Assembly (NCBI RefSeq): GCF_000003815.2
Contig: NC_049979.1
Span: forward strand, 2,753,353-2,817,352
Direction: 5' to 3'
DNA length: 64,000 nt
From: Branchiostoma floridae
Lineage: Eukaryota > Chordata > Leptocardii > Amphioxiformes > Branchiostomatidae
In this document: piece after piece, positions 8,601 to 38,600 of the stretch
How positions within the stretch are numbered: position 1 is the first letter of the stretch
Layout of the letters: every line of letters begins with the position of its first letter
Position numbers and translations under genes: made by a program
The notes under the pieces: model-generated
Told to the model about the DNA's origin: nothing
Database searches by the model: none
What the model saw: the letters and a program-made list of their open reading frames with translations, nothing else

Positions 8601-11600
8601 ACTGATATTACTGTCCCTGTCCTTAGTGCTGACACAACACTGATGTTACTATCCCTGTCCTTAGTGCTCACACAACACTGATGTTACTATCCCTGTCCTT
8701 AGTGCTGACATAACACTGATGTTACTGTCCCTGTCCTTAGTGCTAACACAACACTGATGTTACTGTCCCTGTCCTTAGTGCTAACACAACACTGATGTTA
8801 CTGTCCCTGTCCTAAGTACTGGCATAACACTGATGTTACTGTCCCTGTCCTTAGTGCTAACACAACACTGATGTTACTGTCCCTGTCCTTCGTGCTGACA
8901 CAACACTGATGTTACTGTCCCTGTCCTAAGTGCTGGCATAACACTGATGTTACTGTCCCTGTCCTTAGTGCTAACACAACACTGATGTTACTGTCCCTGT
9001 CCTGAGTGCTGAAACAACACTGATGTTACTGTCCCTATCCTTAGTACTAACATAACACTGATTTTACTGTCCCTGTCCTTAGTGCTGGCACAACACTGAT
9101 GTTACTGTCCCTGTCCTTAGTGCTGACATAACACTGATGTTACTGTCCCTGGCCTTAGTGCTGAATCAACACTGATGTTACTGTCCCTGTCCTTAGTGCT
9201 AACACAACACAGATGTTACTGTCCCTGTCCTTAGTGCTAACACAACACTGATGTTACTGTCCCTGTCCTTATGGCTGACATAACACTGATGTTACTGTCC
9301 CTGTCCTTAGTGCTAACACAACACTGATGTTACTGTCCCTGTCCTTAGTGCTGACACAACACTGATGTTACTGTCCCTGTCCTTAGTGCTGAATAACACT
9401 GATGTTACTGTCCCTGTCCTTAGTGCTGGCATAACACTGATGTTACTGTCCCTGTACTTAGTGCTGACACATTACTGATGTTACTGTCCCTGTCCTTAGT
9501 GCTGACATAACACTGATGTTACTGTTCCTGTCCTTAGTGCTGACACAACACTGATGTTACTGTCCCTGTCCTTACTACTGACATAACACTGATGTTACTG
9601 TCCCTGTCCTTAGTGCTAACACAACACTGATGTTACTGTCCCTGTCCTTAGTGCTGACATAACACTGACGTTACTGTCCCTGTCCTTATGGCTGACATAA
9701 CACTGATGTTACTGTCCCTGTCCTTAGTGCTGACACAACACTGATGTTACTGTTCCTGTCCTTAGTGCTGACACAACACTGATGTTACTGTCCCTGTCCT
9801 TACTACTGACATAACACTGATGTTACTGTCCCTGTCCTTAGTGCTAACACAACACTGATGTTACTGTTCCTGTCCTTAGTGCTGACATAACACTGACGTT
9901 ACTGTCCCTGTCCTTAGTGCTGACATAACACTGATGTTACTGTCCCTGTCCTTAGTGCTGACACAACACTGATGTTACTGTCCCTGTCCTTAGTGCTGAA
10001 ACAACACTGATGTTACTGTCCCTGTCCTTAGTGCTGACATAACACTGATGTTACTGTCCCTGTCCTTAGTGCTAACACAACACTGATGTTACTGTCCCTG
10101 TCCTTAGTGCTGACACAACACTGATGTTACTGTCCCTGTCCTTACTACTGACATAACACTGATGTTACTGTCCCTGTCCTTAGTGCTGACACAACACTGA
10201 TGTTACTGTCCCTGTCCTTAGTGCTAACACAACACTGATGTTACTGTTCCTGTCCTTAGTGCTGACACAACACTGATGTTACTGTCCCTATCCTTAGTGC
10301 TGAAACAACACTGATGTTACTATCCCTGTCCTTAGTGCTCACACAACACTGATGTTACTGTTCCTGTCCTTAGTGCTGACATAACACTGATGTTACTGTC
10401 CCTATCCTTAGTGCTGACATAACACTGATATTACTGTCCCTGTCCTTAGTGCTGACATAACACTGATGTTACTGTCCCTGTCCTTAGTGCTGAAACAACA
10501 CTGATGTTACTATCCCTGTCCTTAGTGCTCACACAACACTGATGTTACTGTTCCTGTCCTTAGTGCTGACATAACACTGATATTACTGTCCCTGTCCTTA
10601 GTGCTGACATAACACTGATATTACTGTCCCTGTCCTTAGTGCTGAAACAACACTGATGTTACTATCCCTGTCCTTAGTGCTCACACAACACTGATGTTAC
10701 TGTTCCTGTCCTTAGTGCTGACATAACACTGATGTTACTGTTCCTGTCCTTAGTGCTGAAACAACACTGATGTTACTGTCCCTGTCCTTAGTGCTAACAC
10801 AACACTGATGTTACTGTTCCTGTCCTTAGTGCTGACACAACACTGATGTTACTGTCCCTGTCCTAAGTGCTGGCATAACACTGATGTTACTGTCCCTGTC
10901 CTTATGGCTGACATAACACTGATGTTACTGTCCCTGTCCTTACTGCTGACATAACACTGATGTTACTGTCCCTGTCCTTACTACTGACATAACACTGATG
11001 TTACTGTCCCTGTCTTTAGTGCTGACATAACACTGATGTTACCGCCCCTGTCCTTAGTGCTGAAACAACACTGATGTTACTGTCCCTGTCCTTAGTGCTA
11101 AAACAACACTGATGTTACTGTCTCTGTATTAGATTACTAGCATACTAACTGCCCACCCATGTGTCAGGGACCCCAGCAGCAGCATAGTCAAACTACTACT
11201 ACTACTACTGCTGCTACTACTACTACTAGTCAGGGACCATATACTGGGTACTACTACTACCACTACTACTATTCAGGGTCCCCAGCCGCAGTATAATCAA
11301 ATACTGGGTACTACAACAGCTACTAATACTATGACCACCACCACCACCACTACTACTACCGCTACTACCATTACTACTATGCAGGGTCCCCAGCAGCAGT
11401 ATAATCAAATACTGGGTACTACTACTACTACTACTTCTACTACTACTACTACAGTAACTCTGAACCTCTTCACAAAAGTAATGACTGTAGAAGTTTTACC
11501 TCAACCTTGGGTGCAGGTGGTGGTGCAGGCTCTACGGGCACCGCTCCAGACTTAGGCCGGGTCGCAGGCTGCTTCGGAGCCTCCTCCAGACTCTTCCCTG

Positions 11601-14600
11601 ATTCCAGACTACTCTGTCTGCCTAAACTCTCCACATGGGTCACTGGAAGGCACACAGGGGGTTCGTCGATGTAGGTTNNNNNNNNNNNNNNNNNNNNNNN
11701 NNNNNNNNNNNNNNNNNNNNNNNNNNNNNNNNNNNNNNNNNNNNNNNNNNNNNNNNNNNNNNNNNNNNNNNNNNNNNTCAGATCTAGAGCAGACTGCACT
11801 ACCTTATATTTGCTAAATTGTCATTAGGCCACAGCAAGTAAATTTTATGGATGACATCCGCACGCTCATTAATTTTTGCCTGATTTCAGAAAAAAAACAA
11901 GAATTTATTCTCTTCTTCAAGGAAGGCTGGATAGACAAAAATGGGTAAAGGTTGTGTTGTAACATAATCATTGAATGTAGAATTGACACTAGAGACTCTG
12001 TAAGCATTGACTGTAGTTGCAGAGGTGCAACTTGATAGATAGTTGTAAAAGTGGCACAACTATGGAAGCTATGAGTGTAGTTGCCAACATGGTTAATGAT
12101 ACCAATCTACCACACTTGTGTCACTCTAACTACACTGCTGCACTTCTTAAATACAGGAATGAATGCCTTGTTGGCTGTGATGCCATATTTTGTCACTTCA
12201 AGTCTTGTTACAACGTCTATTTTGAAAATTTGCCATCTTGTTTAATGTACCCATCTTGTTTTTTATTCGCCCTATCTCATTATTTTTGCAGTCTTCAAAG
12301 GATGTCATCCATTAAAACTTACTTGCTGTGGCCTTATTTAATCCACATAGGGCACTATGCCAAGACACAAACTGATAAGGACTAATAAAGGACAACATGC
12401 TTTATTGAAGGCATGGATGGACTCTGGCTGGAACTGTGAACTGTACATGCATGTGGACTTCGGGGGTCTATGGGTACAGATTAAAACCCAAGATTCTTCC
12501 ATAATTAACCATAACATTGCCAGGATTTCCCCCATGCAGACCCTCTGATAAGCTGACAGGGAAATTGGTACAACTTACCTGGGAACCATCCCACTTTGTC
12601 GTGTTTCCTTCCCTTGTACCAGTCGCCTTTCTGTGAAACAAAATACATTGTTACATTATAAACAAGTTCTATCCGATGTTTGTGAATTATGGTTGTAAAT
12701 TATGTTTAACTTAACACAATCTCATTTACAAAGATGGAAATAAATTTATCACAGCTGAATGAATATTAAAAAAATAGCCTAGAATTTAGAAACAGCTGAT
12801 TGATACGAGGTAAAAAGTAAACTAGTCTCATCAGTGCCTTTGTAAGGCTTTAGGGCAGTGTATTGATAATCCGGAATGGGCACTGGGCACGGTATTGGAA
12901 GGGAAAGCTACTCCTTCTACTGACTTTTACCCCAACCAAAGTCAGGTACCCATTTTTACACCTGGACGGAGTGAGGAAACTCTTGTTAAGTGCATTTCCA
13001 AAGGGCACAACATCTATCCTGGAATGCCAAGAATCAAATTCATGACCTCTCAGTCTGATGACCAGTGCAGTGGCTTGCACAAATGCGTGGCCAAAGGGTT
13101 ACAGAAATGGAGATGGGCGCCACACCCGTTACAGATGTACGAGCAACTTTAACTTTCGGCCTCATGTTCACTAGCCGGGTCACTCAAACATTTGATGCAG
13201 ACACACCATGTCCGCCATTGGAGAACAGCTGAAATGTAGAAATCGAACAAACAAACACAAACTGATCCCAGCTTACCTTTTCTAATGCGTCGACTTCATC
13301 CCCAACCTTGAGGTCGAGCTCATTGGAGCCGTTTGCCTGGAAAGCCTGGATGGCCCTGAGCTTACCCAGCATCGCCTGCTTCCTCTTGTTTCTCTTCCTG
13401 TTCTTCATCCTCCTCTGCATCCTCTCCTCCTTGGTCAGACCAGATAGGTCCTCATCTTTGTCTTCGTCCTGCAGTCCATGGACATAACAACAACAACACT
13501 TCATTGTCTGTTTGTTTGTTTGTGTTTTTTTTTAACATCGCTAGTGAATAGCCTTTAGGTGTAACACATCAATTGTGCACAGTAGGGAAAAGCTGTGTCA
13601 TCCTGGACTGTAAGGTTTGATCCACTCACACCTGAAGTTGAAAAAACCCTACATTTACAAACCATTTTATTTCCTTAGAATACTGTTATTGATAATCATC
13701 TTGTGAAACTCCATGTCTTGTTGGCAGGCTAGCCCTTTGTAATAGGCTACACAGTCTAGTTGGGCAGCCCTGGCTGAGTGTGCTAAACAGCCAAACCAAA
13801 AACTAATGATCCATTAATATTCACATGATGTGCAGAAAGCATCTAAGACACACTTACACTGTCTTCAGGAGGAGCAGTCGTGGGTCTTAACGACGGTTTC
13901 CTCAGCACCTCCAGGTTTGGTTTGGGCAGCCCATCCTCCAACTTGTTCTGGCTCTGTGGAAGTAAAACACAGTCAGACACGTGTCTGGTGTTCCAAGGCA
14001 CCGCATGAGGCACCTTTCCTGACAGTACAGTGATGATCATGATCGAGGTGATGCTGTTATTTTTCCATGAGGAGACACCCGTGAATCCTCCTTCACAGAC
14101 TTCAAATTCTACCAGCACTAGTTTTTATCTTATTTGGGGGATGCTGGCTCGCAATTTTCAACATGGGCTAAGGTTATCTAATGGAAGCCCATGGGATGCA
14201 GAGAATCCGCACATCCGTGCTCATTGCCCAAGTGTGTTTAACGGGGCTTTCGAGACTCTGACATGAAGCAGACTTCCCGTCATTAGAGAACCTTCGCTAG
14301 TGTTGAAAATGTCAAACCAGTGCTCCCCCCTTTAGAATAAAAGCCAGGCTGCTAGAAGTCTGCAAAGGAGGCTGCCACCATTGCTTGTAGCTTGGTGATG
14401 AAGTGATGATGATGCTGTTATTTCCCGAGTGATGCGGTAGTGCTGATGATGGGTGGGGACTTGCCTGCCTGGCTGGCCAGCAAGTGTGAAGTGCAGCAGT
14501 GAGCAGTGAGGTTTAATCTATGCCAAAAAGCAGTTATTCCAGCAACTGGATATGATTTTGGAAACAGTCAAACGTTTCAACTAGTATTCACTAGTTTTCG

Positions 14601-17600
14601 TCAGTGACACTGAAGTGATCTGGAAGAAACAGGTCTTTTATACCCTGTACTATGAATGAAGACAATTTTAGATATACAGTAGGAAACCTGTAACACAAAT
14701 TCAGGCTGAAGACAATTTGGAATCCAATGGATTTTCATATCCAGCTGCTATTTGGCATATCTTATTACTGGATGTCTAACCTTCATTGATGTATCAAGGT
14801 CTAACCTGTTATCTAACCTATTCTAGCTACGGCTTGCACTTACGATTGCTTCCCTTGCCCCAACTTTCACCATCACCAGGGTTAGGTAATTTGTTTGGTA
14901 ATTCTTCAATGAAAATACATGAAAGTACACCTTGTAGTTGCACAAGTTTGTCCATAGCCCACAGCAGTTAGTATAAAGCTCCTCTACCACTGGTCATTTT
15001 AAACTTAAAAGTAATGATGTGCTTCATTCTAAATAATGGACATCTTTCTTTGTCATGCAGACATGAATTCTAAACTATTCCACTTTCAAATCCCTTGCAA
15101 CATTTTCCGAGGTCTTTTTGAATCTAAAATGGCCAGTATCGCCTGATATGAACGGAGCGTGTGGAATGGAGTAAGCCAGGGCAGCAGTAAGCAGTGCATG
15201 GAGAATGGAGGTGCAGGAATGGAGAAGCGGGAGCATTCTTTTGTCCCATGTATGCAAATGAAGACACACCCACCTCACAGGTAAGAGTAAAGAAGGGGGT
15301 CTTACGACATTAGATGACATACAAGTAAAACAAGGCAATATAACATTTGCCTGCAAGATTATTGTGTCTTCATTTGCATAAGTGGGACAAAAACATGCTC
15401 CCATTTCCAGGAATGGAGGGTATCTAACAGGAGGGACCCACTGTGGGGGGGATGGCTGGATATGGAGGACACCAGGAAACCAAGGCTTCTGTTGTTACAG
15501 GACTGAATCCCAATTTTCTTTCATGACCTACATGTATTCATGTTAGGCAAGGGTACATGTAGGCTATAGGGGCATTGGGCTGTCGTCTGCTGTGTCAAGA
15601 GTTATGTGATTGGAGGGCGCAGCCCAGCCCTCTTCTTCCACCACCATTTACCACCCCAACTAAAGTCAGTTGTGCAAAGCACCTTTCCCAAGGACTTCTG
15701 GCTTCTTAACATCCTGCAGTTATGCTACCCGTCGGACTCCAAATATTTTACTGTGAAGCTGTTTATTATTGTAGGGGCTTCTTTTCTTATGTTACCTTCA
15801 CAGAAGGGAACATATATGTTTTTGCTTTGTTTCTTCTTCTTCTTCTTCTTCTTCTTCTCTGCACAAATAAGGTCAACGACCTGGACCAGACGGCTGTCAC
15901 CATGGTAACCGGTAAAGTAGCAGGCACCATGTGGTGTTCGGTTACATAATGTAGCAAATGTCAGATCTAGAGGGGCTCGGGTCACTACATTTAGAAACGT
16001 GTTCAAATAAGAATGAACGAAACAGTTGCCAGTGTTAGACTACAACATGTGAAGGTAACATTCTGTATTTGCTTGCAAATATTACCTTTTTAGTTTGTTT
16101 ATGTGTTTGTTAGTTTACACCAGGTTGCACTGTCCTCCATATCCAGCTATCCCCCAGGAACAGAGAAGAGTGGGTTTTCCCTCAAACCTAGCCTGGTATC
16201 CAGTCATATCATAGCTCCTGAGTCTCTTCTGTCCTCTCTGCGAATACAGAGAGTAGAGTAGAGACTCAGGAGCTATAATATGGCTGAATACCAGGCTACC
16301 TTGGACCATCCTCTCATGTCGGGCCAGCCGCTTGTATGTACCAAGCAACACCTTGGTGTCACCAGCTTGCCATCTGTCCTACTCGCTGCACTAGATCTGA
16401 CCAGCCAACATCAGCTAATCACATCACTGCCTATGGTAAAGAGGCAACGTAATTGGGCAAAAGCTCCCCTTCAACTGCAGAAGGGGGAGCATTTCATTTG
16501 CTGACAGCTAGCCAATCACATTGCTAACTACTGGAAAGAAGCAACATGATTGGTCGATAGCTCCCCTCCAACTGCAGAAGGGGAAGCATTTGACATGCTT
16601 ACAGCTAGCCAATCAGATTGCTGACTACTGCAAAGAGGCAACGTGATTCGTCAATAGCTCCCCTCCAACTGCAGAAGGGGGAGCATTTCATTTGCTGACA
16701 GCTAGCCAATCACATTGCTAACTACTGTAAAGAAGCAACATGATTGGCCGAAAGCTCCCCTCCAACTGCAGAAGGGGAAGCATTTCATTTGCTGAAAGCT
16801 AGCCAATCACATTGCTGACTACAGTCAAGAGGAAAAATGATTGGTTGGTAACTTTCCCCACCAACAACAAGAGGGGGAAGTATATGATTGGCTGACGTCT
16901 GGGTAGCGTAAATGCAGCGAGGAGCACGGAATCTCAGGCCGGTACACCAGGATTGCTGCTCGAAACACGCAAATGGGCGCGGGGACGAGAGGAAGTCTGG
17001 GACATGACTATTCTACCTGTCGACTGGAAGTTCGAGGAGTAGAGGCTCGAGAAGCGGCAGAGTGAGCTATAGACCCTCTCCTTCCCGAGGAGGGCGGGGC
17101 CTCGTTCTGAAAGTCAAAAGGCAGAGAATCGCACAAACACAAACAAACAAACACATGAGAGCAGTACCAGAGCGTTAGTTTCAACCAGACCATTTTTTTC
17201 TTAAAGGAGAATCTTCTTCTTTTTTTTTTGTTCCTCAGTGGAAGGCCTCATGTGCATGGACCACTTCTGCCCACTGAGCTAACGCTCACTGTAGCATCAC
17301 CTCTCAAGCTTAGACAAGTTTGACTAACTGACTCAACAGGCTGATCAGGGGTTACAAAAACTGCTCGGGAGAATTCCCCACCCCATTTTAGGGTGTAGCA
17401 CCACAACATAGCAGTCTCCGTTACAGCCCCTTGTTGAAAATATTTTTCCCAAGGACTATGAAGAGGTTTCTGATAACGATTCGATATCTTACAGCTGTTG
17501 AGATCAGACTGCCACCTGCACTAATCCATACACAATCCATCTCAAAAGCCATCAGAAACCTTGCATGTTGTTGTTGGAAAAACACTCCGATGGGGAATGT

Positions 17601-20600: not shown

Positions 20601-23600
20601 AAGGATAGATACACAAAACAGAATGTACATTATATATACACAATTATACGAAAGAAACAAAAAGAATGTACCTTTTCCTTTTGGAGCTGTCCTATGTCGT
20701 CGTCGTCATTCTTTCCCAACTTGTTGAAGGCTTCGATGGCGATGGCAACAAACAGGCTGGAATGGAAAATATAAGGTTTTAGTGAATTCAACATTTGATA
20801 TTTGACATTTGCAAAAAAAATACTGGCTAAAACACCTAATACATCCTTTAGATGATTTTATTTGTATCCAAAATTAGCTGGACATTTCTGCTCCTTGTTA
20901 CAAATATTATACCAAAAGAGCTTCAACACAACCAAGCCGGCTGACCACCATTTCACAAGTTACAACCCTGCCACAACAACTGATGAGAGAATACTACACT
21001 TTGCTACATTTGTAGCGTATGAAACTAACAAGTAACAACTGATGAGAGAATGCTACACTTACTGTCAGTAGTGCTTTGCTACATTTGTAGCGTATGAAAC
21101 TAACAAGTAACAACTGATGAGAGAATGCTACACTTTGCTACATTTGTAGCGCATGAAACTAAGAAGTAAGCCTTACTTCATGACCACCAGGTTGACCACG
21201 ATGTAGCAGGTCACGAAGTAGATGAGCGCTACATGAGACGTGTTGAGGATGGCCTGAGGAAATGGACAAAAATATTTACGAATATTTATCTATCTATTTA
21301 TTCATCAATCTTGAATATATATGTGTAGTCCCTTCAGTCAAAATTGGTTGATTTCTAAGGGAGCCCAGGACAGGTATATACAGGCTTAAGCTGTGAATAA
21401 TACATCATACAAATATTATATAAAATTCAAAAATTCAAATGTACAAACAAATCCCAATGATAAAATGATATGACCAAGAAGACTTAAAGCTATATGAATA
21501 TCTATTTATTTATTCATCAATCTTGAATATATATGTGTAGTCCCTTCAGTCAAAATTGGTTAATTTCTAAGGGAGCCCAGGACAGGTATATACAGGCTTA
21601 AGCTGTGAATAATACATCATACAAATATTATATAAAATTCAAAAATTCAAATGTACAAACAAATCCCAATGATAAAATGATATGACCAAGAAGACTTAAA
21701 GCTATATGAATATCTATTTATTTATTCATCAATCTTGAATACATAAGGGTAATCCCTTCAGCCAAATTGGGTGATTTCCAAGGGAGCCCAGAACACTTAG
21801 GTCATCAATAATACATTATACAAATAAATAAATTTCAAATGTACAAACAAATCATAATACAACCATGAAGACAAACTGAAGCGTTGGTTAAAGCTATCTG
21901 ATGCCCCTACAGCAATCAATGCCAACGAGTTCCACTCTATCATTATCATAGTTCTAGAAAAAAAGTTTATAGACAATTTAATGCCAACAAGTTCCACTCT
22001 AACATTATCATCATCATAGTTCTAGAAAAAAAGTTTATTAGACAATTTAATGCCAACGAGTTCCACTCTAACATTATCATCATCATAGTTCTAGGTAGAA
22101 TTAATTAACAGTACTCACCGCATTCATGATCTCATGCCAGTTACTGGTGGTCACAACTTGGAACACAACAGCCAGGGAACAGCTAAAGAAGTAGAAAGAA
22201 CATGAGGATGAAAATATGCATGGATTACACACCTCACGTAATTTAAAACTGAGAAATGAAGAGAAGGAAAATCCAACATGATATCTATCAAATATTGAAA
22301 TGAAATTCAGTGAGTAGTACAGCGCACCCAGAGATAATACAAATTTGTTGCCTTTTGATAACTTACCCCACTACTGATCATAAAATGAGAGATGGAGAAA
22401 TGGTTTATTGGATTAAAAAACTGTTGCAGCCTAACGGCTGAATTGCAATTTTGTACAATGATCACAAATTTCACATATACGTTTATATATATATACAACA
22501 TATCAAATACGCTACACTGACATGTCCGATTCCTTTAAAAAAATACTACAAGTTTCCATTGAGGAGTCTGACGCAATAGGGGAGAGTGCTGTTACTCAAC
22601 CGGGACGTCCTACATTTGAAACTGGTGTAGCTGGCATTATTCCTTAAAGTTCTGTTGTGGACTTCCCCCCGCCGCAATGGGAGCCATGAACTGTATCTGC
22701 TAGAGTTCGCAAGAGATTGCACATAACTAAGACATAGAATGTCCCTTCTAGAGTCCAGACGACTGAGTCCTGTTGTGCGCAGAGCAGACTCATAGGTGAC
22801 GTACTCTGGCCCTAGTATGATCCTTAGGGCTCTCTTCTGGACGCGCCCAATCTTCGCTGATAGATCTCTGGACAGTCCCGGGTGCCAGACGACGCATGCG
22901 TACTCCAGAAGTGGCCGTACGAAACCAATTGGTATGAGATCATAAATTGGTATAAAATATAAGTGAATGGCAGGAATGTTAAAAGGGAACATTTAGATAG
23001 ATTACAAAGGATAAACCTTGAACTTAAACTTTATTTGGTTGCATCATCATCTTCCCTCATCCTCCATCTATGACAGAGGTGGAGCATGAATGAAATGTGC
23101 TTTCCAGTACTAACAGTTTTTCACATTCTGTCCTCTAGCTAATCTAAGGGTAGTTTCAGTCAAAAACCAAACCAAATTCTCCTTTTTTTCACAGAAACTT
23201 ATCACACATACACAATAGACAAAAATCAGGCAACACGTCCTGTAGCATGCAATTATCAAGCATATGCTCCTAAGGTCTTTCGAGACCTTTCCCAGTCCTT
23301 GAGAGAAACACTTACAAGAAAGTTTGGAAGCCGAGCCCACACTTGTAGTCCCACAGAGACGTCTCATACTCCGTGTTGATCGAGGTGGGGTCCTGCCGGA
23401 AGAAGATCTCCATACCCAGTGTGGAGTACATGTAGCTGAGGAAACAACATTAAGTTATTAACATTATAGCTAAAACCCTTCCTTCTGTTGATGTACTAGG
23501 GCAGTGCCCATCTCTTTTGTATTATTTCATTGTTAACACTTGTCCAGACATGCCACTATGTGTACAGTATAGTAGAGGGCTTGTCCATTGGCAAACTCTT

Positions 23601-26600
23601 TCTCATACATGAACAAGTACTGAGTGCTTAGGTTTATGCCTTGGTGAATAGAGGTAAGATTGCATTTTTACTCCCAGCCCAGCCCAATGGCAAAATGTCT
23701 GAAAATTAAGAAAACAAACTGGTGAGGCCTTAGAAAGAAATTTGTCATCACCTCCTTTACATATCAATTCATATTTAGGGTATAAAATCCCTCTTCAACA
23801 GATCTGCTCAGTGTCACTGACGAAAAGTATAGTGGATGCTACCTGAAACATCTGACTGTTTCCAAAATCATATCCAATTGCGTGGATAAAGTTTGGACAT
23901 CCAGGTAATAAGATATGCCAGACAGCAATTATACAAGCAACTGGATATGATTTTGGAAACGGTCAGATAACATCCGTTATATTTCATCAGCGACGATGAG
24001 TTTCCGATAACATCCGTTACCTTTTGGATGTTATCTGAAACGTCTAACAGTTTCCAAAATCATATCCAGTTACTTGGGTAACTATCATTTGGCAAAACCG
24101 AGCTTGTGCTACTCACATGATGATGAAGACCAGCAGAAGCAGGTCGAACATGACAGGGTAGATCTTCATGAACAGCACAAATGCTTTCTTGGTCTGTGGG
24201 GGGGAAAATAAAAACATAGTCAACAGGAAACATGCAGGTGCAAATAATGAAACATTTTGTGACTTCATGCATAAAATGAAAATACAGTGGAAGCCGCTTA
24301 ATTGCACACCCGATTTGCCAGTGAATTCCGTGCAATTATCCGGCGTGTGCGATAATGCAAAGTTACCCAGTTGGACCACACCGCCACAGGATTTGGGGAT
24401 TCCGTGCAATTGACCAAAGTGTGGGTTTATCTGACGTGCAATTAAATGGCTTCCACTGTATCAATAGACAATGCCGGAATGAACATAATTGGTAGTACTG
24501 TGACATCATTCTGTAGTCTGGACGAAAAAAAGAATTCACCCCATCCATCCCAAAAATCCGAGCTTCATGACAGTCATGAATCTGACAAAAAGGTATAATT
24601 CTAAGCTTAAAATGACAGATTTAGCTACGAAAATTGACAACATTGGTTCACAAACAAGGAGTGGGACAGAGAAAAAATTAAAGCTGGAGACATCCCTGCT
24701 ATTCAGTATGAGGAATAGCCAAGGAAAGCCCTGGTACCAGGTATGCAATACAAGCAACTTGTATTTTCTCTTACACATGTAGCTCTGCAGTTTGAAATGT
24801 ACATGTGTATGATGTATCCGGTGTAAATTTTAGTGTGTTTATTTTTTATAATCTTTCCGTCATGTCCGTTACATGTGCATTGATGTACTTTTATGTGGAG
24901 GACCACAGGAACAATAGCTGTCAACAATGTTAAGCTAAATGTGGATCCAAATAAAGTCAGAGTCAAACCGACCTGTGAGGAGTTGAATCCCAGCCTGGTG
25001 AACACGGCTAAGGAGGACACCACGATGCACCATCCGCGGTACACCAGCACGTCACTTTCGATCACGTACACAACAACATACCTGCAGGGGGGAGCACAGG
25101 TTAACAAGGTTATTTCAGAATCCACACAACTACATGAAGTGTTTACATTCATTTGTAAGCCAATGTTTTGGTGAGTGGTTTGTTGACTTTCTAAAATAAA
25201 TAAAAAATATACCAGACAACATTGCCCACAATGGCTATGATGACCATGAGCATGTCAGCCAGCTCCAGTGGATCTTACGTCTTCTAACTTACAAACAAAC
25301 AAACAAACAAACAAACATAACAGACAACATTGCCCACAATGACTATGACGACCATGAGCATGTCAGCCAGCTCCACTGGGTCTTACTTCTTACTTACAAA
25401 CAAACAAACAAACAAACAAACATACCAGACAACATTGCCCACGATGGCTATGACGACCATGAGCATGTCTGCCAGCTCCAGTGGGTCTAACATCTTCTTA
25501 CAAACAAACTAACAAACAAACAAACAAACATACCAGACAACATTCCCCACGATGGCTATGACGACCATGAGCATGTCTGCCAGCTCCAGTGGGTCTAACA
25601 TCTTCTTACAAACAAACTAACAAACAAACAAACAAACGTACCAGACAACGTTCCCCACGATGGCTATGACGACCATGAGCATGTCAGCCAGCTCCAGTGG
25701 ATCCAACATCTTCCTCCCCAGCCCGATGAACCTGATGGTGATCTCAACCAGGAACAGGAACACGATTGCTGATCTGATCGCTGGGGGGAAAACAAGAAAT
25801 CATTGGTTGGTTGGTTGGCTAGTTGGTTGGTGGAATGAATGAGTGAGCGAGCGAGCAGGGAAGTAAATGTGCAGGTAGACTAAGTCAGCCTGTCAATAAG
25901 TCAGTGCATAAAAGCATGACTTATGCCAAGAGGACTGACTTCAGTAAATGGAAGAAGGATGGATGTTTTGTCATCCTTCAATCAACTTGATCATTACATG
26001 ACCTTACAAAGCCTTTCCCTACCGGTAGACTGGCCCCCTGCTTAAGGACTTGCACACTACCACAGTTAATAACTTCTTTCTTCAGAATCAAGTAGTGTAA
26101 CCCAAAATGCATTAAGTGGCTGCATGAGCCCTGTCTTGCGGTGAACCTTAAGTAGATTTTTAAAAAAGCTTTGTGGCCAAAGGGATGTAGAGATGGAGAT
26201 AGGCCCTGCCCTATACACTAACCAGTGTGGGAAGGATTTTGACCAGAGGAATTGTTTTTTGAAAAGTACAAAACTTCCACCAACCTTGCACGATGAGCTC
26301 GTCATCGCGGGTCATGCTGTGCCAGCGCACACAGAAGAGGATGCAGTGGATGCCGATCAGCACCAGGATGAAGATGGAGAACACCGTGGCCTGGAACAAA
26401 CATCAGCAGAGCAAACATCGTAAAACACCGGAAACAAGCATATCTTCTACTGGAGAGAGCATAGCCTGATCAAATCTCACTTATTGCAGCCTGCATAACA
26501 TCCAGCCGGCTTACCAGAAGGGGCCAGTTACAGCCCTGGACAGCAGAGTTGTGTTACAGACTAGAACGAGCAGAGCAAGTATCATAAACACTGGAAACAA

Positions 26601-29600
26601 GCACATCTTATCCATATGAGTTTTATGCCCATTCTTTGTCAACGGGACTACTGATGTCAAGCATAAGCAGTGGGCCACCATTCTTTTAAAACACAGCTCT
26701 ATGAGTCTAGCTTTCTTTCTTTTCTAGCACTAAGTTTCCCATAGCCACGCCTAGTAGACAGTCTTTGATGATGTCAGTTAACACAGCAGCCAGGTCAGAA
26801 CCTGGAAACTTAGGTTATGAAAAAATATTGTCTTTTGGTGAGAAAATAGTGAATAATCATCCTGGCCAAATATACTTGAAAGATGCTATAATCTTTACTT
26901 ATATAATGCAATTTTTGTAACATCTGCTTGACTCTCAAAATAACAAAATCTCATAAGGCACTGTGCAGGTGCCAGGCTGCTATGTCTGCTGTAATGTCAT
27001 CGAAGGCATTAAATTTGATAACCCTAAGACATGAATCAGTAACATCAGAAGTGTGTATATTTTGTACAAACATTTAATGTTCATTGAATAATACTTGTTA
27101 TGGTAGAATGTAATCAGGAAATTTCATATTACAATTCGTATCACAAGCACCTTCAATGTAAACGACCCCAATGAACAAAAGAAATGGTAGTAAATCCACA
27201 GACTCAATGGAAGCGACCTTATATAGCCGTTTCAGCTACGTCATTTACAAATGCCAGGCACAAGCTACACAAATAAGCTGTCTTGCTGAATGGTCCATCA
27301 GGCTATTTCTCTCCCTTTGTCTGTATTGTCGTCTTTGTTTGTGCCACCTGTGCAGGTTCTCACATGACCTAACACAGCCATGTCTAAACTACACGTGTAA
27401 ACTAAAGCTGAACAATTCATAGCTTAAACATTTGAAGAGAAACGACAACAAACAAAGCATGTCATTAATTGAATACTGAGCACTTAAGAGGGGGGTCTAT
27501 ATGACCTTTTGCATAAAGCGTAATCTGCTGATTGAATTTCACATACTTAGTTACTAGCCAGACTGCAGACTAGGGTTGTCAGTGCATTCTACATATAGTG
27601 AAATTAGCACCTGAATATAGCTAAAGCAAAGCCATCATGCCAACTTTGGCCAGTTTTTGTTTGTTCATAAGATATAAAAGAACACAAAACAAGACAAATT
27701 TTTCTTATGGTTCCTGAAATAAATTTTGTAGCCTAACATTTGTCAGGCATTGCCAGGCACATTGTATTCAGCCATAGGCTGAGATTGCTTGATAAAATTA
27801 GAGAGTACTAATGGGAAGAATACTGAATTCTTTTCAATGCATGCAGAACTGGTAGGTATTTTATCACACAATGTCATGCATTTCTAACTTCCTGAAATTA
27901 ATATTTATCAGAAAATAACACCCCCTTCTGAAAATATAAATAGGACACCTTTAGGTGGACGTACGTGTCTGCACAATGTAAGTACAAATCTAAGAACAGT
28001 CAGTTTACCTGTGCCACTCTTTTGAAGACATCGATCACGAATGAGAAGCATGTTCCATGGACTCTCTGGAAGACAAAAAATGTCTGTTAAGTACCATAAA
28101 TTCATTTTTATTTTTGCAAGACTTAATTTCTCAGTTAAAAGGGGTTTTTGTAACCAGCACAAACATTTCATGATCACGATGATTCTCAAAATTATTCCAC
28201 ACTTATTCCAAACGATCATCCATGCCCAGGCGTCCCTACTCACTGTTTTCTCCTGCACATGAGAAGGAATGAGCCCAAATGCCATCAGAATAGCTATTCT
28301 TCCTCTATTCCTGGGTTATTGTAGTGCATTCTAGACATTCTCACTGCATTCCAGATATTTTTTAGTCACATTCTGGCAGGATTTCTGGCTTGCCGTTTTA
28401 GTTCTCCATCAAATGAGATCAGAATGTGTCGAATAATGTTGGAATGCCGTAGAATGCAGTAATACTGTAGTAAGAAAACACTTTGAATGTCATTTGATAT
28501 TTCTCCATTGCATTTACGCCCCGAAAGTTTTGAGCATGTCAAAAACTTTCGGGCCAGCCAAAAGAACGGGCACAAATATCTGGAATGCAGTGAGAATTTC
28601 TAGAATACACTACAAATTCCCAGGAATAGGAAAGAATTTTCATTCTGACGGCATCCCGGCTCATTCTTGCTCTCGTGTGGAAGGGCCTTAAAGGCTACTC
28701 ACTGTTATCTCCTGCACATCCGACTCCTCGAACTCGAAGGACAGCGCATCGTTCAGCCCGGTGGTCCAGTCGAAGGCGTCCACGAACCCGTCGCTGTCCT
28801 GGTCTATCTCCGTTATCAGCTCCCGGTTCTCCTCGTCTGTGTTCTGGGGACAGGGGACGGGGAGGTGAGATTAGCCTCTGTTGCAGTCTTTGATCATGAA
28901 CGGGGCTGTTTTTTACCAGTGCTCTCAGTGTAGATACACGATGTAAAGAGTTAACCAACAACAACCTGTTTGTACATATAATGACAACCACAGACAATTT
29001 TGTACAACTTTGTACAACTTTGTACAACACAAACTCTGTGATGTTTTAAGAAAAGGGAAGAGTCATGTAAACGTTAGATATAGTGATAGCATAGTTACAG
29101 ATGTATTGTTATTCAATTGTAATGCTACATGTTATAGTACTTAGTCTTTAGTATCCCATCATGGGATTTGCTGCATTTAGCCCACATGGGCAGGAACATG
29201 CAAATAAAGATCATTCACTATATTGGGGGTGGCAGAGTTGGTTCGCAATTTTCAACGTTGGCTAGGTTCTCTTGTGCCGGGAAAGGGAGTCTCGCCCCCT
29301 TGACTAGACAACCGAGACAACGTTGAAAGTCACACTGTGCCACAGTATTTGTGTGTGTGCGTATGTCACAGTATGTGTGTGTGTTTGTGTGTGTACCTTT
29401 GGCTTGAATATCCTAAAGAGCGTGACCAAATGTACGTACCTTTGGCTTGAGTATCCTGAACAACGTGAGCAAATGTACGTACCTTTGGCTTGAGTATCCT
29501 GAAGAGATTATACAAAAGTACATACCTTTGGCTTGAGTATCCTGAAGAGCGTGAGCAGTCTCTCGTCGTTGACTGCCAGCTGCCCCTCCCCCAGGGGGTC

Positions 29601-32600
29601 CAGCAGGTTCCACGCCTTCCCCAGCTCCGCCCGCTCCCGCGAGCGTTCCCGCTTCACGTGCTTCTTCGAGAACTCCCTACAGGGGAGAGAAGGAAATTGA
29701 CGTATGTGAACCTGAATCTGATTTAATCAACCAATGTACTGAGGAACTCCTGTACTATAGAACTCAACGGTACCAGAATATACACTGTCATGTAGTAGGG
29801 CTGTTCCTTGTATAACATGTTTCATCAATCAGTGACTGTAAAATTGACATCTACAATATACTTGGACAATATTGTACTGATAACTACCATTCCTTTAATT
29901 TGCTGTCCCCTCTCTAAACTTGTACGTTGAATCAGGTTGTGGATTTTAGATTCCTTCTCCCCGATGTTATCTTGATATCCAGTTGTAATATTCAAATATT
30001 TATGTTTTCCCAAGTAGGGAAAAACATAATTATTGTTCTTTTTCTAGTTAGAATAACTCCTAAAGGGTTGAGAAAGAAGGAAACGCACCAGTAGCTGTCC
30101 ACGATGATGGCCAGCAGGATGGCTGCTAAGAAGTACACTCCGACGTACAGGAAGATACCAAAGTACAGGAAGGCTGCCCGCTCCTTGTCAAAGGCCTTCA
30201 TCATGAAGTCCTGAAACACAAAAATTCATGATATACTACTGAAGTAAAGCCGGTTCAGCTTTATCCATTGACTTGACTTTGACTTTATTCAGATCCACTT
30301 TTAGCTATTACAACATTATGTTGCCAGCTATTCTTCCAGTGGTCTACATAAAATACATTAATACACGCACAACATTACATACATACAAACATAATATGTA
30401 CATTGCATCCATTGGGCAACCTATGTCTGTTATTTATGAAAACAGACTGTAAGGGGATATGAATTCAAAGAATGGTGGCTTCACATTGCAATGTTTCCAA
30501 CAAGTTGCAGTTTGAAACCACCATCTGGCAACTTCATATCCCCTTATGCCCTGATCTTAAAAACACTGGGTATGGGTTACACCAAAGTGGTTCCTACACT
30601 AAACTGGTAGCTACACTAAACCGGTTGCTACATCTAACTGATTGCTACACTAAACCAGTTGCTACATTTAACTGATTGCTACACTTAACTGGTTGCTACA
30701 TTTAACTGATTGCTACACTTAACTGGTTGCTACATTTAACTGATTGCTACACTTAACTGGTTGCTACATTTAACTGATTGCTACACTAAACTGGTTGCTA
30801 CACTTAACTGATTGCTACACTAAACCGGTTGCTACATTTAACTGATTGCTACACTTAACAGGTTACAACAATCTAAAGGCAACTTTTCAGTTCCCACAAC
30901 AACAAAATCATTAGATCACCAACCGGGTAGTTTTCTGTGGACAGCAGCACAAACAGCTGGAGAGAACTGGTCCCGATCTGGTCAAACACTCTGGGGGGAA
31001 AAAATATTGCGTTAAAATTCATCTGCTTTTATTAGCTAATGAAAATTTGACATCTTAAGATATTTTAGCTTTCTCTGATAGTTTTGGTCTTACTTAGCCT
31101 GGGTACCGTCTGGACAGTAGTTCACTCCGGCATTTATTATACACTGTACAAATTCGCTTTTGCTCTGACTTTTATCGTTCACTATATACAGTCGCTTCTC
31201 TAACGTCTAGAATTGGCCAAATTGTCCTGTTGTCATCAAACGAGCACTCTAGAACCCAATCCTCATTGACTGACATTACCACCAAAAGATCTGAATATAC
31301 AGTTCTCCAGACGGGTAGCAGAAGCGAACATAGGAGCGAAGTACTACCCAGATGGTACCCAGGTCTAGGTCTCACTCACATTGCAAAAAGAATTGCTCAA
31401 TCAACATGTGCGAACATGTATATAGGGCTCCCTTGGAAATCAGTTACTACGTTAACTGAAGGGACTACCCTAAAGATCAAGAATTAAATAAACAACTGTA
31501 TGTAAACTGCTAATAACAGTAGTGAAGAGCAAAGGCAAAGATGTGACTTACCCTGTATAAACGTCTGGATCATTGTCTGTACAGGTGCTGTAAAATAAAA
31601 GGGGAGAAGGTCACATAAGGTATTAGACCAGTTACAGGTAAGGATTGTAATTTTTGTTTTGCTGACATTCTCTTTTATCTTATATTGTACACCTAATCTT
31701 TTCTTGGCACCTATAGATATTTAAGTTGGGTGCACCAGTGTACCTATTCCCAAAAAGGATGCTTCCTCTTGAGCATTACGGTTTGAGTTCAACAGAAGCA
31801 CCACACAATACTGTAAATGCAGAAACTTTTGTGGTGGTTTAATGTTTGCGATTTTCGCGGTGGCCGCTTCACCGCGAACATTTTTTTGGGGCAATAAGAG
31901 ACTACAGTGCATGGTGCCAACGCGAACTTAAAACCACCGCAAAAAGCCCTTTTTCCCGATGTCGCAAAATTAAATCCCAGTGGACTTATATGCATTTACA
32001 GTACCATGTGGAGTGTGGGGTTGTGTGGCATAGTCGGCAGGTAACCCAGAGGTTCTGGGTTCAAATACTTTGGTGTGCCAACAATCTTGGGCCCTTGCGA
32101 AAGGCACTTTACCTGACTTTCCTCACTTTACTCCATTAAAAATGAGTACCTAGCTTCGGTTAGGGCTGTCCCTTGGATAGGACGTTAAATGGAGGTCCTG
32201 TGTTTGAGGAGAACAATACCTGGATATTGACAATATTCGGCACAGGACGGCCGTCACAAAACTACGAGTCAGTTGCCACAAATTACACATTGAAACCGGA
32301 AGACATAATTAACCGCACTCCTCTAGAACAACGAATATGTAGATACTGCAATCTAGATAAGTTAGAAGACGAACATCATTTTGTAGTAGAATGTAGTTTG
32401 TGCAAGAAAGAGAGAGCTGAACTCTACAGACTAATAGAACCCAAGTTCTCCCCACTTCATACAACTAAGTAATATAGACAAATTTATATTCCTTATGAAT
32501 CTGGACAAACCTTTACTTATAAAGCATATTATTCTGTTCTTACATTTTCAATATCACAAAGAAACGAGAAGAATCCGAATGTACGCAGTAGAATACGATT

Positions 32601-35600
32601 CTTGAGTAGTGTAGATTCATTGTATCATGTTGTATCGTTCGTTGTGACCTGTACTGAACCCAGTGGGTATGTATGTACAATAAAGGTCTTCATTCATTCA
32701 TTCATTCATTCATTAAAGACCACACCGCACTTATCGAAAAAAGTAGGGTCCTTCCTAGTGTGAGTGGATCAAATAATCTGTTGTGTTATGCCAGTTTAAC
32801 CACCTGCATATACAGGTTAGTGCAGGTAAATTTGGAGCTGTGCAGGTATTTCTGGTGTCTACCTGCACCTAACCTGCACTGGTCCATGTACTGGGTTTTT
32901 AGCTGCATTAAACTGATATAGCAATGGTTCCTGAACAATTTTAGTATGATTCATACTTCCCAAGTTCAGAGTGGTACAGGTAAAATACATCTGGTGCAGG
33001 TGATTTTCAATGTTACCTGCACCAGTGCAGGTATGCAGAAAACAGCATTTTGAGCCCTAAATACAAACAAACCAAAGAGAGCCCTACATGACGGTTGTAG
33101 CTGAGTTGGTGGTGCAGTTATCTTGGTAATACAAACAAACAAAAGAAAGCCCTACATGACGGTTGTAGCTGAGTTGGTGGTGCAGTTATCATGGTAATAC
33201 AAACAAACAAAAGAAAGCCCTACATGACGGTTGTAGCTGAGTTGGTGGTGCAGTTATCATGGTAATACAAAAAACAAAAGAAAGCCCTACATGACGGTTG
33301 TAGCTGAGTTGGTGGTGCAGTTATCTTGGTAATACAAACAAACCAAAGAAAGCCCTACATGACGGTTGTGGCTGAGTTGGTGGTGCAGTTATCATGGTAA
33401 TACAAACAAACAAAAGAAAGCCCTACATGACGGTTGTGGCTGAGTTGGTGGTGCAGTTATCATGGTAATACAAACAAACAAAAGAAAGCCCTACATGACG
33501 GTTGTAGCTGAGTTGGTGGTGCAGTTGTCGTGGTAGGCCTCCATGAAGATGTGCACACCGATGGCACTGAAGGTCAGGATGAAGACTAGGATGATCACAA
33601 ACACCTGCGCACAGGTAAATACACAACAAGACACAGGTAAATACACAACAAAATACACAGGTAAACACACAACAAAACACACTGTCAGGTAAATACACAA
33701 CAAAACACAGGTAAATACACAACAAGACACAGGTTAACACAGGTAAATACACAACAAAAACACAGGTAAATACACAACAAAACACAGGTAAATACGCAAC
33801 AAAACACACTGTCAGGTAAATACACAACAAAACACAGGTAAACACAGGTAAATATACTACAAAAACACAGGTAAATGCACAACAAGACACTCACCAGGTA
33901 AACACAACAAACACAGGTAAATACACAATGCTTGTTGGAATATCTTTTTACCCGTATGTCTAACTTTCATCGATGGTGGACCAGACAACTAATTGGGGAC
34001 AGCTAACTGGGACAGCTGGGATTGACCTCTGCTAGACAAAGCGTGACCAAGACAGTTGTAGAATATGATATATATATACAGTATACAATATGTATATGTA
34101 ATCTAACCATGGATAGTGAGTGAGTGTGAGTGAATATGACCGCAGTTGGAAGCTCCCTACATACCTTCCCCAGTTTGATAATGATGGACAGCAAGACGTC
34201 GAAGATGTGCCCCACGTTCTTGGCCTTACAGAGAAGCATGCCTGCCCGCAAGCACCGAAACGGCTGCGCTAACCTCTGTGGGAAAGGACACAAAACGTGG
34301 CATGGTTACTACATTCTTGGGAAATGTTGCAGTACTTTCTAGGCACAAAAATAGTACTTTATGAAAAAGGAAAAAAAAATCTCTTTGGCAGCAAAGTATG
34401 AATCCATTATTGTGTTATGCCGAAGGGCAGTTATACCGGCTATAACGTTATAGATACAGGACTGGTACAGATACAAAATCACTCTTTGTAAATGGCTTCT
34501 TACATCACAGAGGTGGTGGATTGCCCATGCCTTGACATACAGGTAGGCTAGATAGAATAGAGCTGGACAGTAGCAAAGTTGGGTATGTCAAATTTTTGTG
34601 TTGGAAATTACAGAATAGTCAACATTCCTTCAGAACTATTTTTTACCAAGCTGAACAGAGATGAACTTTAAAGACAAAGAATTCCTGTACCACACCATGT
34701 ACATTGTATATGTCTACTTTGAAGATCAGGAGACCTACCATAGAAATGGCTTCCTGTATGATGAGCATGATGAAGTCGAAGGTGAACATGCACACCAGAT
34801 AAAACTCCACTCTGTACACAGGAGGGAACACAGGTAACTACACACCCTTCCTGCTTTAGGTACATGTACTGTGGTAGGTAACTACAGATACTTAGGTATT
34901 GTGGTAGGTATTCTATGTACTATAATGTTTTGTTTCATCATCATAATTTCATTCAAATACAATTCAATGTCTACAACTGGATAAAATGGAAATTTACTTC
35001 CGGAAATTTCGAGTGACATCCATCACTTTTCCTTCGCGTCACTAGAATCAACTGGCAGAACAATTCAATACAAGTACAGCTAAACAAGAAAAACTGGTTG
35101 AACAAGTAAGTGGAGTAATGTTGGTGAATTCATAAGTTCAACCACGTCTGGTAGTAAGTCTGTGAGCTGCTTGCTTTTCTCTAAAGTTACACTACTATTA
35201 CCAACAGCATTAATCAAAATTGATTTACTGTTCTGAAAATAGTTTCATCAGGTTGCCAGATAATAGGATATAGGGAGTTTTCTTTTACACAACCAGCTCA
35301 TCTCAAATTAGCTGAAAATTTGATGCCTGTCAGACATCTTCCTCACAGCTTCTAACTGGAGTTCTCCTTTAAAAGGTCAGCTAGGGTGAGATTAACTAGT
35401 TGTGTAACATCCTCCTATGCAGGGACATCCAATGGCGAAATTGCCTGTCTGGATGTACCCTGCGTTCTCAAACGTCTGACCCTTAGTTCCTGCGGGCGTC
35501 ACCAAAAACCAGCTGTCAGCCAATCACAGAATAGGCCTTTCAGTTTTCAAAAGGGATCTTGCATATATAAGGTAAGCTCATTAATATTCATAAGCAGGGC

Positions 35601-38600
35601 GGTCAGGAACTAAGGGTGACAGTTGAGAAAGCAGGGTACATCCAGACACTGTCAGGCTGTTTCACCGTTGCATGTCCCTGTGTAGGAGGATAGTTGTAAA
35701 AGAAAACTCCTATATCCTATGATTTACAGTTCATTCTAATAAGGAACACTAAACAATGAAAATGTCCGACCTCATCCACTTGTTCTCGTCGAGCGCCCAG
35801 TAGACTCTCCAGGTCATGAAGGCCATGTGCAGGGCGATGTCCACATAGTAACACAGCAGGCAGAAGGAGGTGCCGATGTACACCCACCAGTTCATACTGC
35901 AGAACAACACAGAACACAGCACTCAGAGACGGCAGACTTCAACCCCACTGTCCGTGAATATTTTCAATCAGCTTGGCAAATGACTGGAAACACAGTTCTT
36001 TATTTGTGACTCTATCTCGTTGTTTTCGTGTTTGTTTGTTTGCTTCTGTGTACTTGCGATCCAGCGGTGATGTGCCCCAGACCTGTGGAGGCTCCCAGAA
36101 AGCCTACGTACAGTGTAGCAGTATGATTTATACCAGTCTGTGTTTGTTTATTTGTTTTTGTTTGTTTGCTTGCTTGTTTGGTTGTTTGGTTGTTTGTACT
36201 TTGAACCCAGCAGTGATGTGCCCCAGACCTGTGGAGGCTTCCAGAAAGCCTGCATGCAGTGTAGCAGTATGTTTGTTTGCTTGTTTGTTTATTTGCTTGT
36301 TTGTTTATTTGCTTGCTTGTTTGTTTGTTTGTTTGTACTTACGACCCAGCGGTGATGTGCTCCTGTGGAGGCTCCCAGAACGTCAGTGTGCAGTGCAGAA
36401 GGATGACCAGGTACAGAAACCGCTTGAACCAGCGATTACTTATAATGTAGAAACATCTGCAAAGGGGGAATACAGGGGGTTACACTTACAGTGGCCAGTT
36501 ATAAAACTAAATATATTTAAATAATCCATTACAAGCATTTATATCTTTGTTGCTAGGTCCCGTCAAATCTAAGGACATACTTTGGGATGGTCACAAAATC
36601 AGGATTGAAATTTATCACAATAAAGTACTTAAAAGAAAAAAATCACGGAAAAAGTCTGGGGCCAGCCAGGGATTCGAACCCAGGACCTTTAGAATAATTA
36701 GATCCTAAGTCAACAACTCTTACCACATGACCACCTTGCTACCAAAGGAATTTTCAATCATGTCTCGCCTTTGTGCCAATTTGGGCATCAAGATGGCACA
36801 AGACAACAAACTAGCATATAGTTTTAGAATATGAAAACCAGGGTTGGACAAGTCCACTAGTCTAATTGTCCTTGGCAAGTAAAAGTGACGATCGGGCAAG
36901 TGCATATACTACCCCACTTGCCGGATCGAGCGAGTAAGATTTTTCCATGATTTTGATTAACTAGTTACTTTTTAAAGTCAAGGTATCAAACTTTGGCCAA
37001 CATAGAAAAATAGAGCCGATAGTAAAAGAAGTCAATTGCTTGAAGTAAAAAAAAAAAGGCCTTTGAATTTCCAGCAAGTGAAAAGTTGGTTCTTGCAAGT
37101 CATTTTTGTATGTATCTGTATCTGTATCTGTTTCTAGCCGGTACAACCGCCCTTCGGTGTAACACACCAGCTTCCCAGGCACGCGGCTCGGCAGCAGTTG
37201 GTTATTTTTCGCTTAACGACCTGTCACACCTAGCTTTTGCACATCTATCTGCAATGTACTTGCCCAATAGGACAAGTGAGTTTTAGAAAACTTGTCCTAC
37301 CCTGAGAACCAAGAATTTACATTGTTGAGGCCTAGAGGATCGAGTTTGATCAAGTCTCACCTTTGTGCGAACTTGGGCTTGAAGATGGCGCGAGCTTTCC
37401 CGTACTTGCCTCGGCCGGCCAGGGCGTCGTCGATGTGAGCAGCAGCAAGTTTCAGCTCCCTGTTCTCTCCCTGCAGGTCCACAAACGTCTTGGTCAGCTC
37501 ATCGCTCTGGGGAGGAACAGGAAACACTGATAAGTTCTTTCAAGTTTGTTTGTTTGAGACCTTTGTTTATTCATGAAAGCTCATATCAGCCTGCAGGCCG
37601 CTTTTCATTGTGGTCATGAGGGAAGAGGCAAGGGCCAGCAAGACAAAGTATAACAGAGATACAGTTTACATCATATGTCCTAATGAGTCTTATAAGCAGG
37701 CTTTTAGCTAGGATTTTATAATAGGGCGTCCAAACTTACTGGTGAGTCGCAGTAAGTGACTATTGTAGGAGGGGTCTGGGGGCATCCACCTTCCATGGTG
37801 CAGAGTTTTTGATGATTTTAGGTTTAAAAAGTGCATTCTAAGGTATCCCAAGAGGCAAAAATACACAATGTACTGTTACAGATATCACAGTAGAAGACTG
37901 TGACCACAGATGACCTGGTTGCATCCCTGGTCAATCAGAATTTCATGCTTGTCAGAGGATTTTCTCCCCAGAATAGGGCGTCCAGGGGCATCAAATTTCT
38001 TGTTATTCTAAGAAAAGGGCGTCCAGATGACGCGTTGACGCATGCCTGGCTAAAAGCCTGCTTATAAGTCTATAAGTCTATACAAACAATTTTAACATAC
38101 ATTGTACAAAATATATGATAGTGAGAGCTGCTATATGATTTCAGTCCGTTCATTTTGGTCATTCCCGTTACTTTAGGAGTACCTTAAAGAAGCTATAGTT
38201 GGGGGTTTGCGGTGGTACTATTCCAAATGTCATACCTGGGCAGAGGTCTAGCCTATGTAAAACCTGACAGATTTAAGTATAAATCTGAGCAAAATTATCG
38301 GGTAAAATAGGGGAAAAAATACCATAAGATGAGTGTGACAGCACCCTTATTCCATCATCTGAGGGTACTATATCTGATGCAGGAGCGCGCAATGTCGCTC
38401 GCACAAGGCAGACATTTTTAGTAGTCAATGACAGAACTTTGTACGGGATGACAGAAGAAGGAAGAATTCTGTAGTGCGGTAGAAATGCAATGGAAAGGCA
38501 CATTTGCAGTGTCATTATTTCACGGGTCAGAGGTCACCATGAAAACTGCAAAAACAAAACCACCAAAATTACTGTCTACAAGACAGTCGCACAAAAATAT

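What the first reader, a model, noticed from the sequence alone, without database searches (positions are those of the whole stretch)
25207..36343. Tandem copies of exon 3' ends with their splice donors in four introns of one gene
In the channel gene, exons 3, 7, 11 and 15 are each followed, inside the intron, by 2, 6, 3 and 4 extra copies of the exon's last 25-65 bases plus the start of the intron; exon 12 has one displaced copy. Unit lengths differ (about 143, 68, 43 and 107), so these arose separately. All lie on the downstream side and all are centred on a 5' splice site. Chance placement of minisatellites would not favour donors in this way. Possible meanings: decoy or alternative donors, a replication or repair process that duplicates donor sites, or a route by which introns grow or new introns arise.
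Basis: partly seen in the sequence, partly recalled or inferred. Interest (0 to 1): 0.88.

Follow-up and report, generated by a model that had tools for sequence, protein, structure and literature searches.

The report
Repeated exon edges in lancelet introns
A lancelet ion-channel gene carries small tandem copies of several exon ends inside its introns; this is a known lancelet oddity called a "mirage", and copies of exon starts are about as common as copies of exon ends in the sequence examined.

Summary
Of 17 copies 13 keep GT. Reading past each of the six real donors meets a stop within 22 nt, so the copies are unlikely to be useful donors. Such arrays are published in amphioxus as "mirages"; a globin locus of this assembly shows the published 157-bp spacing, so the species is most likely Branchiostoma floridae. 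The donor-specific reading fails: a PHF10-like gene 14 kb outside the window has 2 of 11 donors and 4 (by reading 5) of 11 acceptors duplicated; 13 kinesin loci have 0 of 59 exon 3' ends and 1 of 59 exon 5' ends; pooled 7/88 v 5/88 (P=0.77). What is unusual is the local density of arrays. Whether exon edges in general attract arrays is unsettled: base-wise there is no excess; counted by array there is (12 of 21 v 5.5 random, P=0.002), driven by one gene. TTTG/CAAA microsatellites beside splice sites are a possible seed for some.

The parts
   Evidence: phase-consistent splicing, 623 codons without stop; Ion_trans E=2.5e-38; solved T-type Ca channel and two-pore channel chains match
36029..36360 (-). 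array at exon 3 donor (last exon base 36343): 2 copies, last exon-like bases 36204 and 36058; donors read CA and GC
33060..33535 (-). array at exon 7 donor (last exon base 33495): 6 copies of a 67-68-bp unit, all keep GT
29393..29557 (-). array at exon 11 donor (last exon base 29526): 3 copies of a 43-bp unit, all keep GT
25205..25713 (-). array at exon 15 donor (last exon base 25642): 4 copies of a 105-108-bp unit with TTTG tracts, 3 keep GT
28236..28260 (-). displaced copy of exon 12 donor (real copy 28695-28719), 459 bp away, keeps GT
33610..33928 (-). intronic array of about 22-bp units that abuts but does not span exon 7's acceptor (first exon base 33604)
30578..30864 (.). intronic array of 17-bp units not touching an exon edge, in intron 9

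Best explanation
These are amphioxus 'mirages': minisatellites that include an exon edge. A short local tandem duplication, probably by replication slippage or unequal exchange and in some cases perhaps started at TTTG/CAAA tracts beside the splice site, copied an exon edge together with the start of the intron, and the array then grew and shrank like any minisatellite. It does no harm, because one complete edge always stays joined to the exon body; that one is used and the rest leaves with the intron. Shown here: the arrays, the intact reading frame when the exon-joined donor is used, stops just past the real donors, loss of GT in 4 of 17 copies, arrays of the same build at acceptors of neighbouring genes, and no donor excess over 15 genes. 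Inferred: the duplication mechanism, the role of the microsatellite, and normal splicing (reported by others for Adh3 and globins).
For: Gene model. Copies and their donors. Published mirages: PMC3087553, passages and the whole of its minisatellite section; PMC3902484, passages. A globin locus, L026, has a 157-bp repeat spacing that fits the published BflGb9. Acceptor-type arrays: PHF10-like gene, kinesin locus L031, and three more read by eye in the neighbouring sequence (one of them also found by segments). Pooled exon 3' ends 7/88, exon 5' ends 5/88 (2 of the 88 are predicted start codons and not acceptors). Junctions with copies match the rate at intron positions: channel 5/36 v 4.7 expected, PHF10 6/22 v 5.9, kinesins 1/118 v 1.8. 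In the two array-rich gene spans all 5 TTTG/CAAA tract clusters lie 7-38 bp from an exon edge, where 16-24% of the span lies within 60 bp of an edge.
Against: Counted by array instead of by base, arrays touching an edge exceed random placement: 12 of 21 v 5.5, P=0.002 (14 of 23 v 6.6, P=0.003 with repeats up to 1000 bp apart). The excess comes from PHF10 (7 of 9 v 1.8); the channel gene alone gives 4 of 9 v 2.9, P=0.32, or 6 of 11 v 3.7, P=0.12. So a preference for exon edges of either kind is not excluded. The base-wise comparison is not fully independent, since copies that lie in introns raise the intron rate. Within single genes the donor-acceptor difference looked skewed under circular shifts with the stricter filter, in opposite directions: channel 6:0 P=0.003, PHF10 0:4 P=0.006; the PHF10 skew went away with the probe test (2:4, Fisher P=0.64), the channel's did not (P=0.045). 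No TTTG/CAAA tract lies in 9 of the 13 edge arrays of the two genes. No RNA evidence was available.
Confidence: 0.8

Rival explanations
1. Exon edges of both kinds are preferred places for minisatellite birth or survival in this genome, seeded by TTTG/CAAA tracts next to splice sites or held visible because one copy is under selection as exon. (Compatible with the mirage reading; a stronger claim about placement.)
For: 12 of 21 arrays touch an edge v 5.5 at random, P=0.002; PHF10 7 of 9 v 1.8; 5 of 5 tract clusters in the two gene spans lie within 38 bp of an edge; the 5 tract-bearing arrays among 42 in the 164-kb block are all at exon edges, one of them at a predicted exon without homology.
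Against: One gene drives the excess; circular shifts of the repeat mask show none (channel mean 5.1 v 6 observed, PHF10 6.1 v 4); kinesins 1 of 3 arrays v 0.9. A copy held by selection decays more slowly, which alone would make edge arrays easier to detect. Of the 13 edge arrays in the two genes 9 have no such tract.
Confidence: 0.3
2. A replication or repair process duplicates 5' splice sites specifically.
For: 6 of 18 donors and 0 of 18 acceptors in the channel gene.
Against: Acceptors are duplicated in the PHF10-like gene (4-5 of 11, two of them with 15 and 11 copies within 1.5 kb), in a kinesin gene and in other neighbours; pooled 7/88 v 5/88.
Confidence: 0.04
3. The copies are functional decoy or alternative donors that regulate the channel.
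For: 13 of 17 copies keep GT; all six at exon 7 and two of four at exon 15 score as well as the real donor.
Against: Read-through from each of the six real donors meets a stop within 1-22 nt; four copies have lost GT; 9 of 17 offsets are multiples of 3 and 8 are not, so frame is not kept.
Confidence: 0.05
4. Assembly artefact of repeated sequence.
For: Published mirage copy numbers differed between haplotypes (BflGb6) and between assemblies (PGBD5), and the draft version of BflGb6 was called aberrantly assembled (PMC3087553, PMC3902484, passages).
Against: Units differ by substitutions and by length; one published case, PGBD5, was confirmed with new sequence data; the 157-bp globin spacing recurs here. 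Copy number in any one array may still be wrong.
Confidence: 0.03

Closest known systems
Amphioxus mirages (Adh3: Canestro et al. 2002, as cited in PMC3087553, paper itself not held; globins BflGb6 and BflGb9: PMC3087553; PGBD5: PMC3902484; troponin C, as cited in PMC3902484)
   Same: minisatellite-like tandem copies that span an exon-intron boundary, units of tens to about 160 bp, both 5' and 3' boundaries affected, intact authentic boundary
   Different: six edges in one gene, and 13 in two genes about 36 kb apart (channel 6, PHF10-like 7), a denser cluster than the passages I read describe; polymorphism and mRNA were not testable here
Intron gain by tandem genomic duplication (potato RdRp PMC4974935; review PMC3443670; both seen only in the search listing)
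   Same: a tandem duplication brings extra splice-site sequence
   Different: here the copies lie inside existing introns and no new intron was seen
Ordinary intronic minisatellites
   Same: unit sizes, tandem growth, present in the same introns (for example 30578-30864)
   Different: the unit includes an exon edge

Membership tests
amphioxus mirage | tandem repeat spans an exon-intron boundary | tested here: met
   6 of 18 donors in the channel gene, 5 of 18 by the stricter probe
amphioxus mirage | authentic boundary and reading frame remain intact | tested here: met
   18 exons, 0 stops when the exon-joined donors are used
amphioxus mirage | cephalochordate genome | tested here: met
   indirect: 513.4 Mb genome with a globin locus whose 157-bp repeat spacing fits the published BflGb9 (PMC3087553); the species name is inferred
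amphioxus mirage | normal mRNA despite the copies | not testable with these tools
   no RNA data; only the predicted stops
amphioxus mirage | copy-number instability between haplotypes | not testable with these tools
   one assembly only
intron gain by tandem duplication | a new intron bounded by splice sites from the two duplicate copies inside coding sequence | tested here: not met
   the six copied edges of the channel gene lie in introns that have their own acceptor; splicing from the first donor to the next exon keeps the frame
donor-specific duplication process | donors duplicated more often than acceptors | tested here: not met
   pooled exon 3' ends 7/88 v exon 5' ends 5/88, P=0.77

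The most novel reading that the evidence does not exclude
In a minisatellite-rich part of the B. floridae genome, exon edges of both kinds are preferred sites for array birth, in part seeded by TTTG/CAAA tracts that lie within a few bases of splice sites, so that introns there grow by copying their own edges.
Probability: 0.25. Interest if true: 0.6.

Novelty: new member of a known kind. Interest (0 to 1): 0.38.

Why it matters
It adds a dense cluster of mirages to a phenomenon that the papers I saw describe gene by gene, and gives counts with controls: exon ends and exon starts are hit alike, and mirages were rare in 13 kinesin loci (1 of 118 exon ends). It makes two questions testable: how the spliceosome picks the exon-joined site among several near-identical ones, and whether introns grow by duplicating their edges. 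It also warns gene-model builders in this genome, as short copied exon parts with good splice sites are easily taken for exons (as happened at locus L031).

Tried and rejected
Donor preference: rejected by the 15-gene count. Genomic-direction polarity: channel donors (minus strand) and PHF10 acceptors (plus strand) both put the intron on the left, which suggested a replication-direction effect (note); dropped when the sequence showed contrary cases, the PHF10 donors at A24986 and A27192 and acceptor arrays in a minus-strand gene at A7548 and about A5.2k. The first repeat filter had hidden the two PHF10 donors (one search gave 0/11), because it discards microsatellite-rich or short segments; the probe test found them, but in turn missed channel exon 12 and the acceptor of PHF10 exon A33952. 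Both sets of numbers are given.

Self-trained gene finding on the 264 kb in hand was too loose or too narrow to give a genome-like sample, so the survey used homology-anchored genes instead. Pairs of the donor word CAGGTAAGT 31-61 bp apart occur 356 times against 9 for the reversed word (only the first places are listed), but many of the listed pairs belong to dispersed repeat families, so this says nothing about exon edges. Myosin heads (148 matches): looked through only by eye, no clear tandem partial match seen; short copies would be missed. The kinesin set is 13 compact loci picked from 134 matches, not a random sample; two predicted exons in L031 that are themselves copies were dropped before counting (61 anchored exons to 59), and 2 of the 59 exon 5' ends are predicted start codons. 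PHF10 exon limits rest on splice scores and phase, and one acceptor (A21204) is uncertain. Duplication breakpoints were not analysed for microhomology.
Full report
What is there. The channel gene lies on the minus strand. Eighteen exons (22119-37506) splice in phase into 623 codons without a stop. The product matches Pfam Ion_trans and, among solved structures, T-type calcium channels and two-pore channels, with a stretch in the middle that matches calmodulin. This open frame is itself evidence that the donor joined to each exon body is the one used.

The copies. Exon-end copies with their donors lie downstream of exons 3 (2 copies), 7 (6), 11 (3), 15 (4), 12 (1) and 2 (1): 17 in all. Offsets are 139/285; 68-407 in steps of 67-68; 43/86/129; 108/216/321/429; 459; and 592. 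Thirteen of 17 keep GT; the others read GC (exon 2), CA and GC (exon 3) and TT (exon 15). From each of the six real donors, reading on meets an in-frame stop after 1 to 22 nt. A self-comparison over 20 kb gives 72 repeat segments against 0 in each of three order-2 Markov simulations.

Intron growth. From the coordinates, array sequence makes up 437 of 560 bp of intron 15, 314 of 446 bp of intron 3, 435 of 1907 bp of intron 7 and 133 of 682 bp of intron 11.

Known phenomenon. Tandem copies of exon-intron boundaries are published in amphioxus under the name mirages. I read the minisatellite section of PMC3087553 (other passages) and passages of PMC3902484. Between them they name Adh3, two globins, PGBD5 and troponin C; the globin paper states that both 5' and 3' boundaries can be duplicated, that Adh3 data and its own globin RT-PCR suggest undisturbed splicing, and proposes intron gain from such arrays. 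The original Adh3 paper is not held. Seven searches of the held library were answered; among the listed titles and opening lines of abstracts I saw no genome-wide count of mirages. As a positive control, globin locus L026 carries a 106-bp segment repeated at a distance of 157 bp (88.7% identical) that reaches the end of the globin match, which fits the 157-bp unit published for BflGb9.

Survey. Three sets of genes were compared. (1) The channel gene. (2) A PHF10-like gene, block A 21204-36223 (about C1:2724556-2739575), found with a recalled human PHF10 sequence, exon limits by splice score and phase. Block A is the window with 50 kb on each side, so that A = window coordinate + 50000. (3) Thirteen kinesin loci with 59 exons anchored on Pfam matches. 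The probe was the 24 bases centred on a junction, with a copy counted at 20 or more matches within 1.5 kb. Channel: donors 5/18, acceptors 0/18, intron positions 319/2461. PHF10: donors 2/11, acceptors 4/11, intron positions 683/2563. Kinesins: exon 3' ends 0/59, exon 5' ends 1/59 (2 of these are predicted start codons), intron positions 109/7129. Pooled 7/88 and 5/88, Fisher P=0.77. The earlier segment test gave 6/18 and 0/18, 0/11 and 4/11, 0/59 and 1/59, pooled 6/88 and 5/88. Reading the sequence adds a fifth PHF10 acceptor with three upstream copies. Some PHF10 arrays are large: 15, 16 and 11 copies within 1.5 kb at three edges.

More in the same 164 kb. By eye, further edge arrays lie at A1667-1801 (minus strand, donor, 2 copies; also found by segments), at A7394-7548 (minus strand, acceptor, about 12 copies of a 44-bp unit; also found by segments), around A4.6-5.2 kb (minus strand, acceptor), and at A148902 (plus strand, acceptor). 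With the channel (6 donors) and PHF10 (2 donors, 5 acceptors) this makes about 9 donors and 8 acceptors. These last four rest on predicted exons without homology.

Within-gene skew. Under circular shifts with the first filter the donor-acceptor difference was unusual in both genes, in opposite directions (channel 6:0, P=0.003; PHF10 0:4, P=0.006). With the probe test PHF10 became 2:4 (Fisher P=0.64) and the channel stayed 5:0 (P=0.045). The channel's own skew is thus unexplained, or chance.

Do arrays prefer exon edges at all? Base-wise no: junctions with copies equal the rate at intron positions (5 v 4.7, 6 v 5.9, 1 v 1.8), and circular shifts of the repeat mask give means of 5.1 and 6.1 against 6 and 4 observed. 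Array-wise yes: 12 of 21 arrays touch a single edge against 5.5 at random when placements over whole exons or inside exons are excluded, P=0.002; the excess is PHF10's. The two answers differ because array copies in introns raise the intron rate, and because long arrays placed at random would often cover whole exons. An array with one copy under selection also decays more slowly. I leave this open.

A possible seed. TTTG or CAAA tracts of 12 bp or more form 5 clusters in the channel and PHF10 spans, and all 5 lie 7, 8, 8, 14 and 38 bp from an exon edge, where 16-24% of the span lies within 60 bp of an edge. Four of the five are inside edge arrays. The 13 kinesin loci hold 1 tract in 55 kb. Tracts inside arrays were multiplied with them, so clusters and not tracts are counted. 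Against this, 9 of the 13 edge arrays of the two genes have no such tract.

Verdict. It is a cluster of known amphioxus mirages; the donor-only pattern belongs to this one gene; the arrays have enlarged introns; new introns and used decoys were not seen, though RNA was not available and new introns were not searched for.

Noticed in passing
G000:C1 about 2737655-2739575 (block A 34303-36223): The last modelled PHD exon of the PHF10-like gene is preceded by 11 or more copies of its acceptor and first bases, most 83-98 bp apart, with an unrelated stretch (perhaps a mobile element) inside the array.
   Followed up: partly
window 8019-11127: 82 copies of a 38-bp unit that ends in an acceptor-like CCTTAG, with assembly gaps nearby on both sides (7686-7785 and 11678-11777); could be another acceptor-type array.
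   Followed up: no
window 16436-16845 and 57046-57290: Minisatellites with 97-bp and 41/82-bp units, not near a modelled exon.
   Followed up: no
whole genome, for example G000:C1:20224899-20226505: Dispersed repeats with tandem units of about 51 bp starting CAGGTAAGTAAGG, several in opposite orientation 1-1.5 kb apart; they account for many of the listed tandem donor-like words.
   Followed up: no
G000:C5:4436089-4437418: An array with 19 listed pairs of the perfect donor word CAGGTAAGT, most 58-65 bp apart; may be a large donor-type mirage.
   Followed up: no
L031 (G000:C2:31967606-31968129): Kinesin gene with two upstream copies (154 and 305 bp away) of an exon start including its acceptor.
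   Followed up: yes
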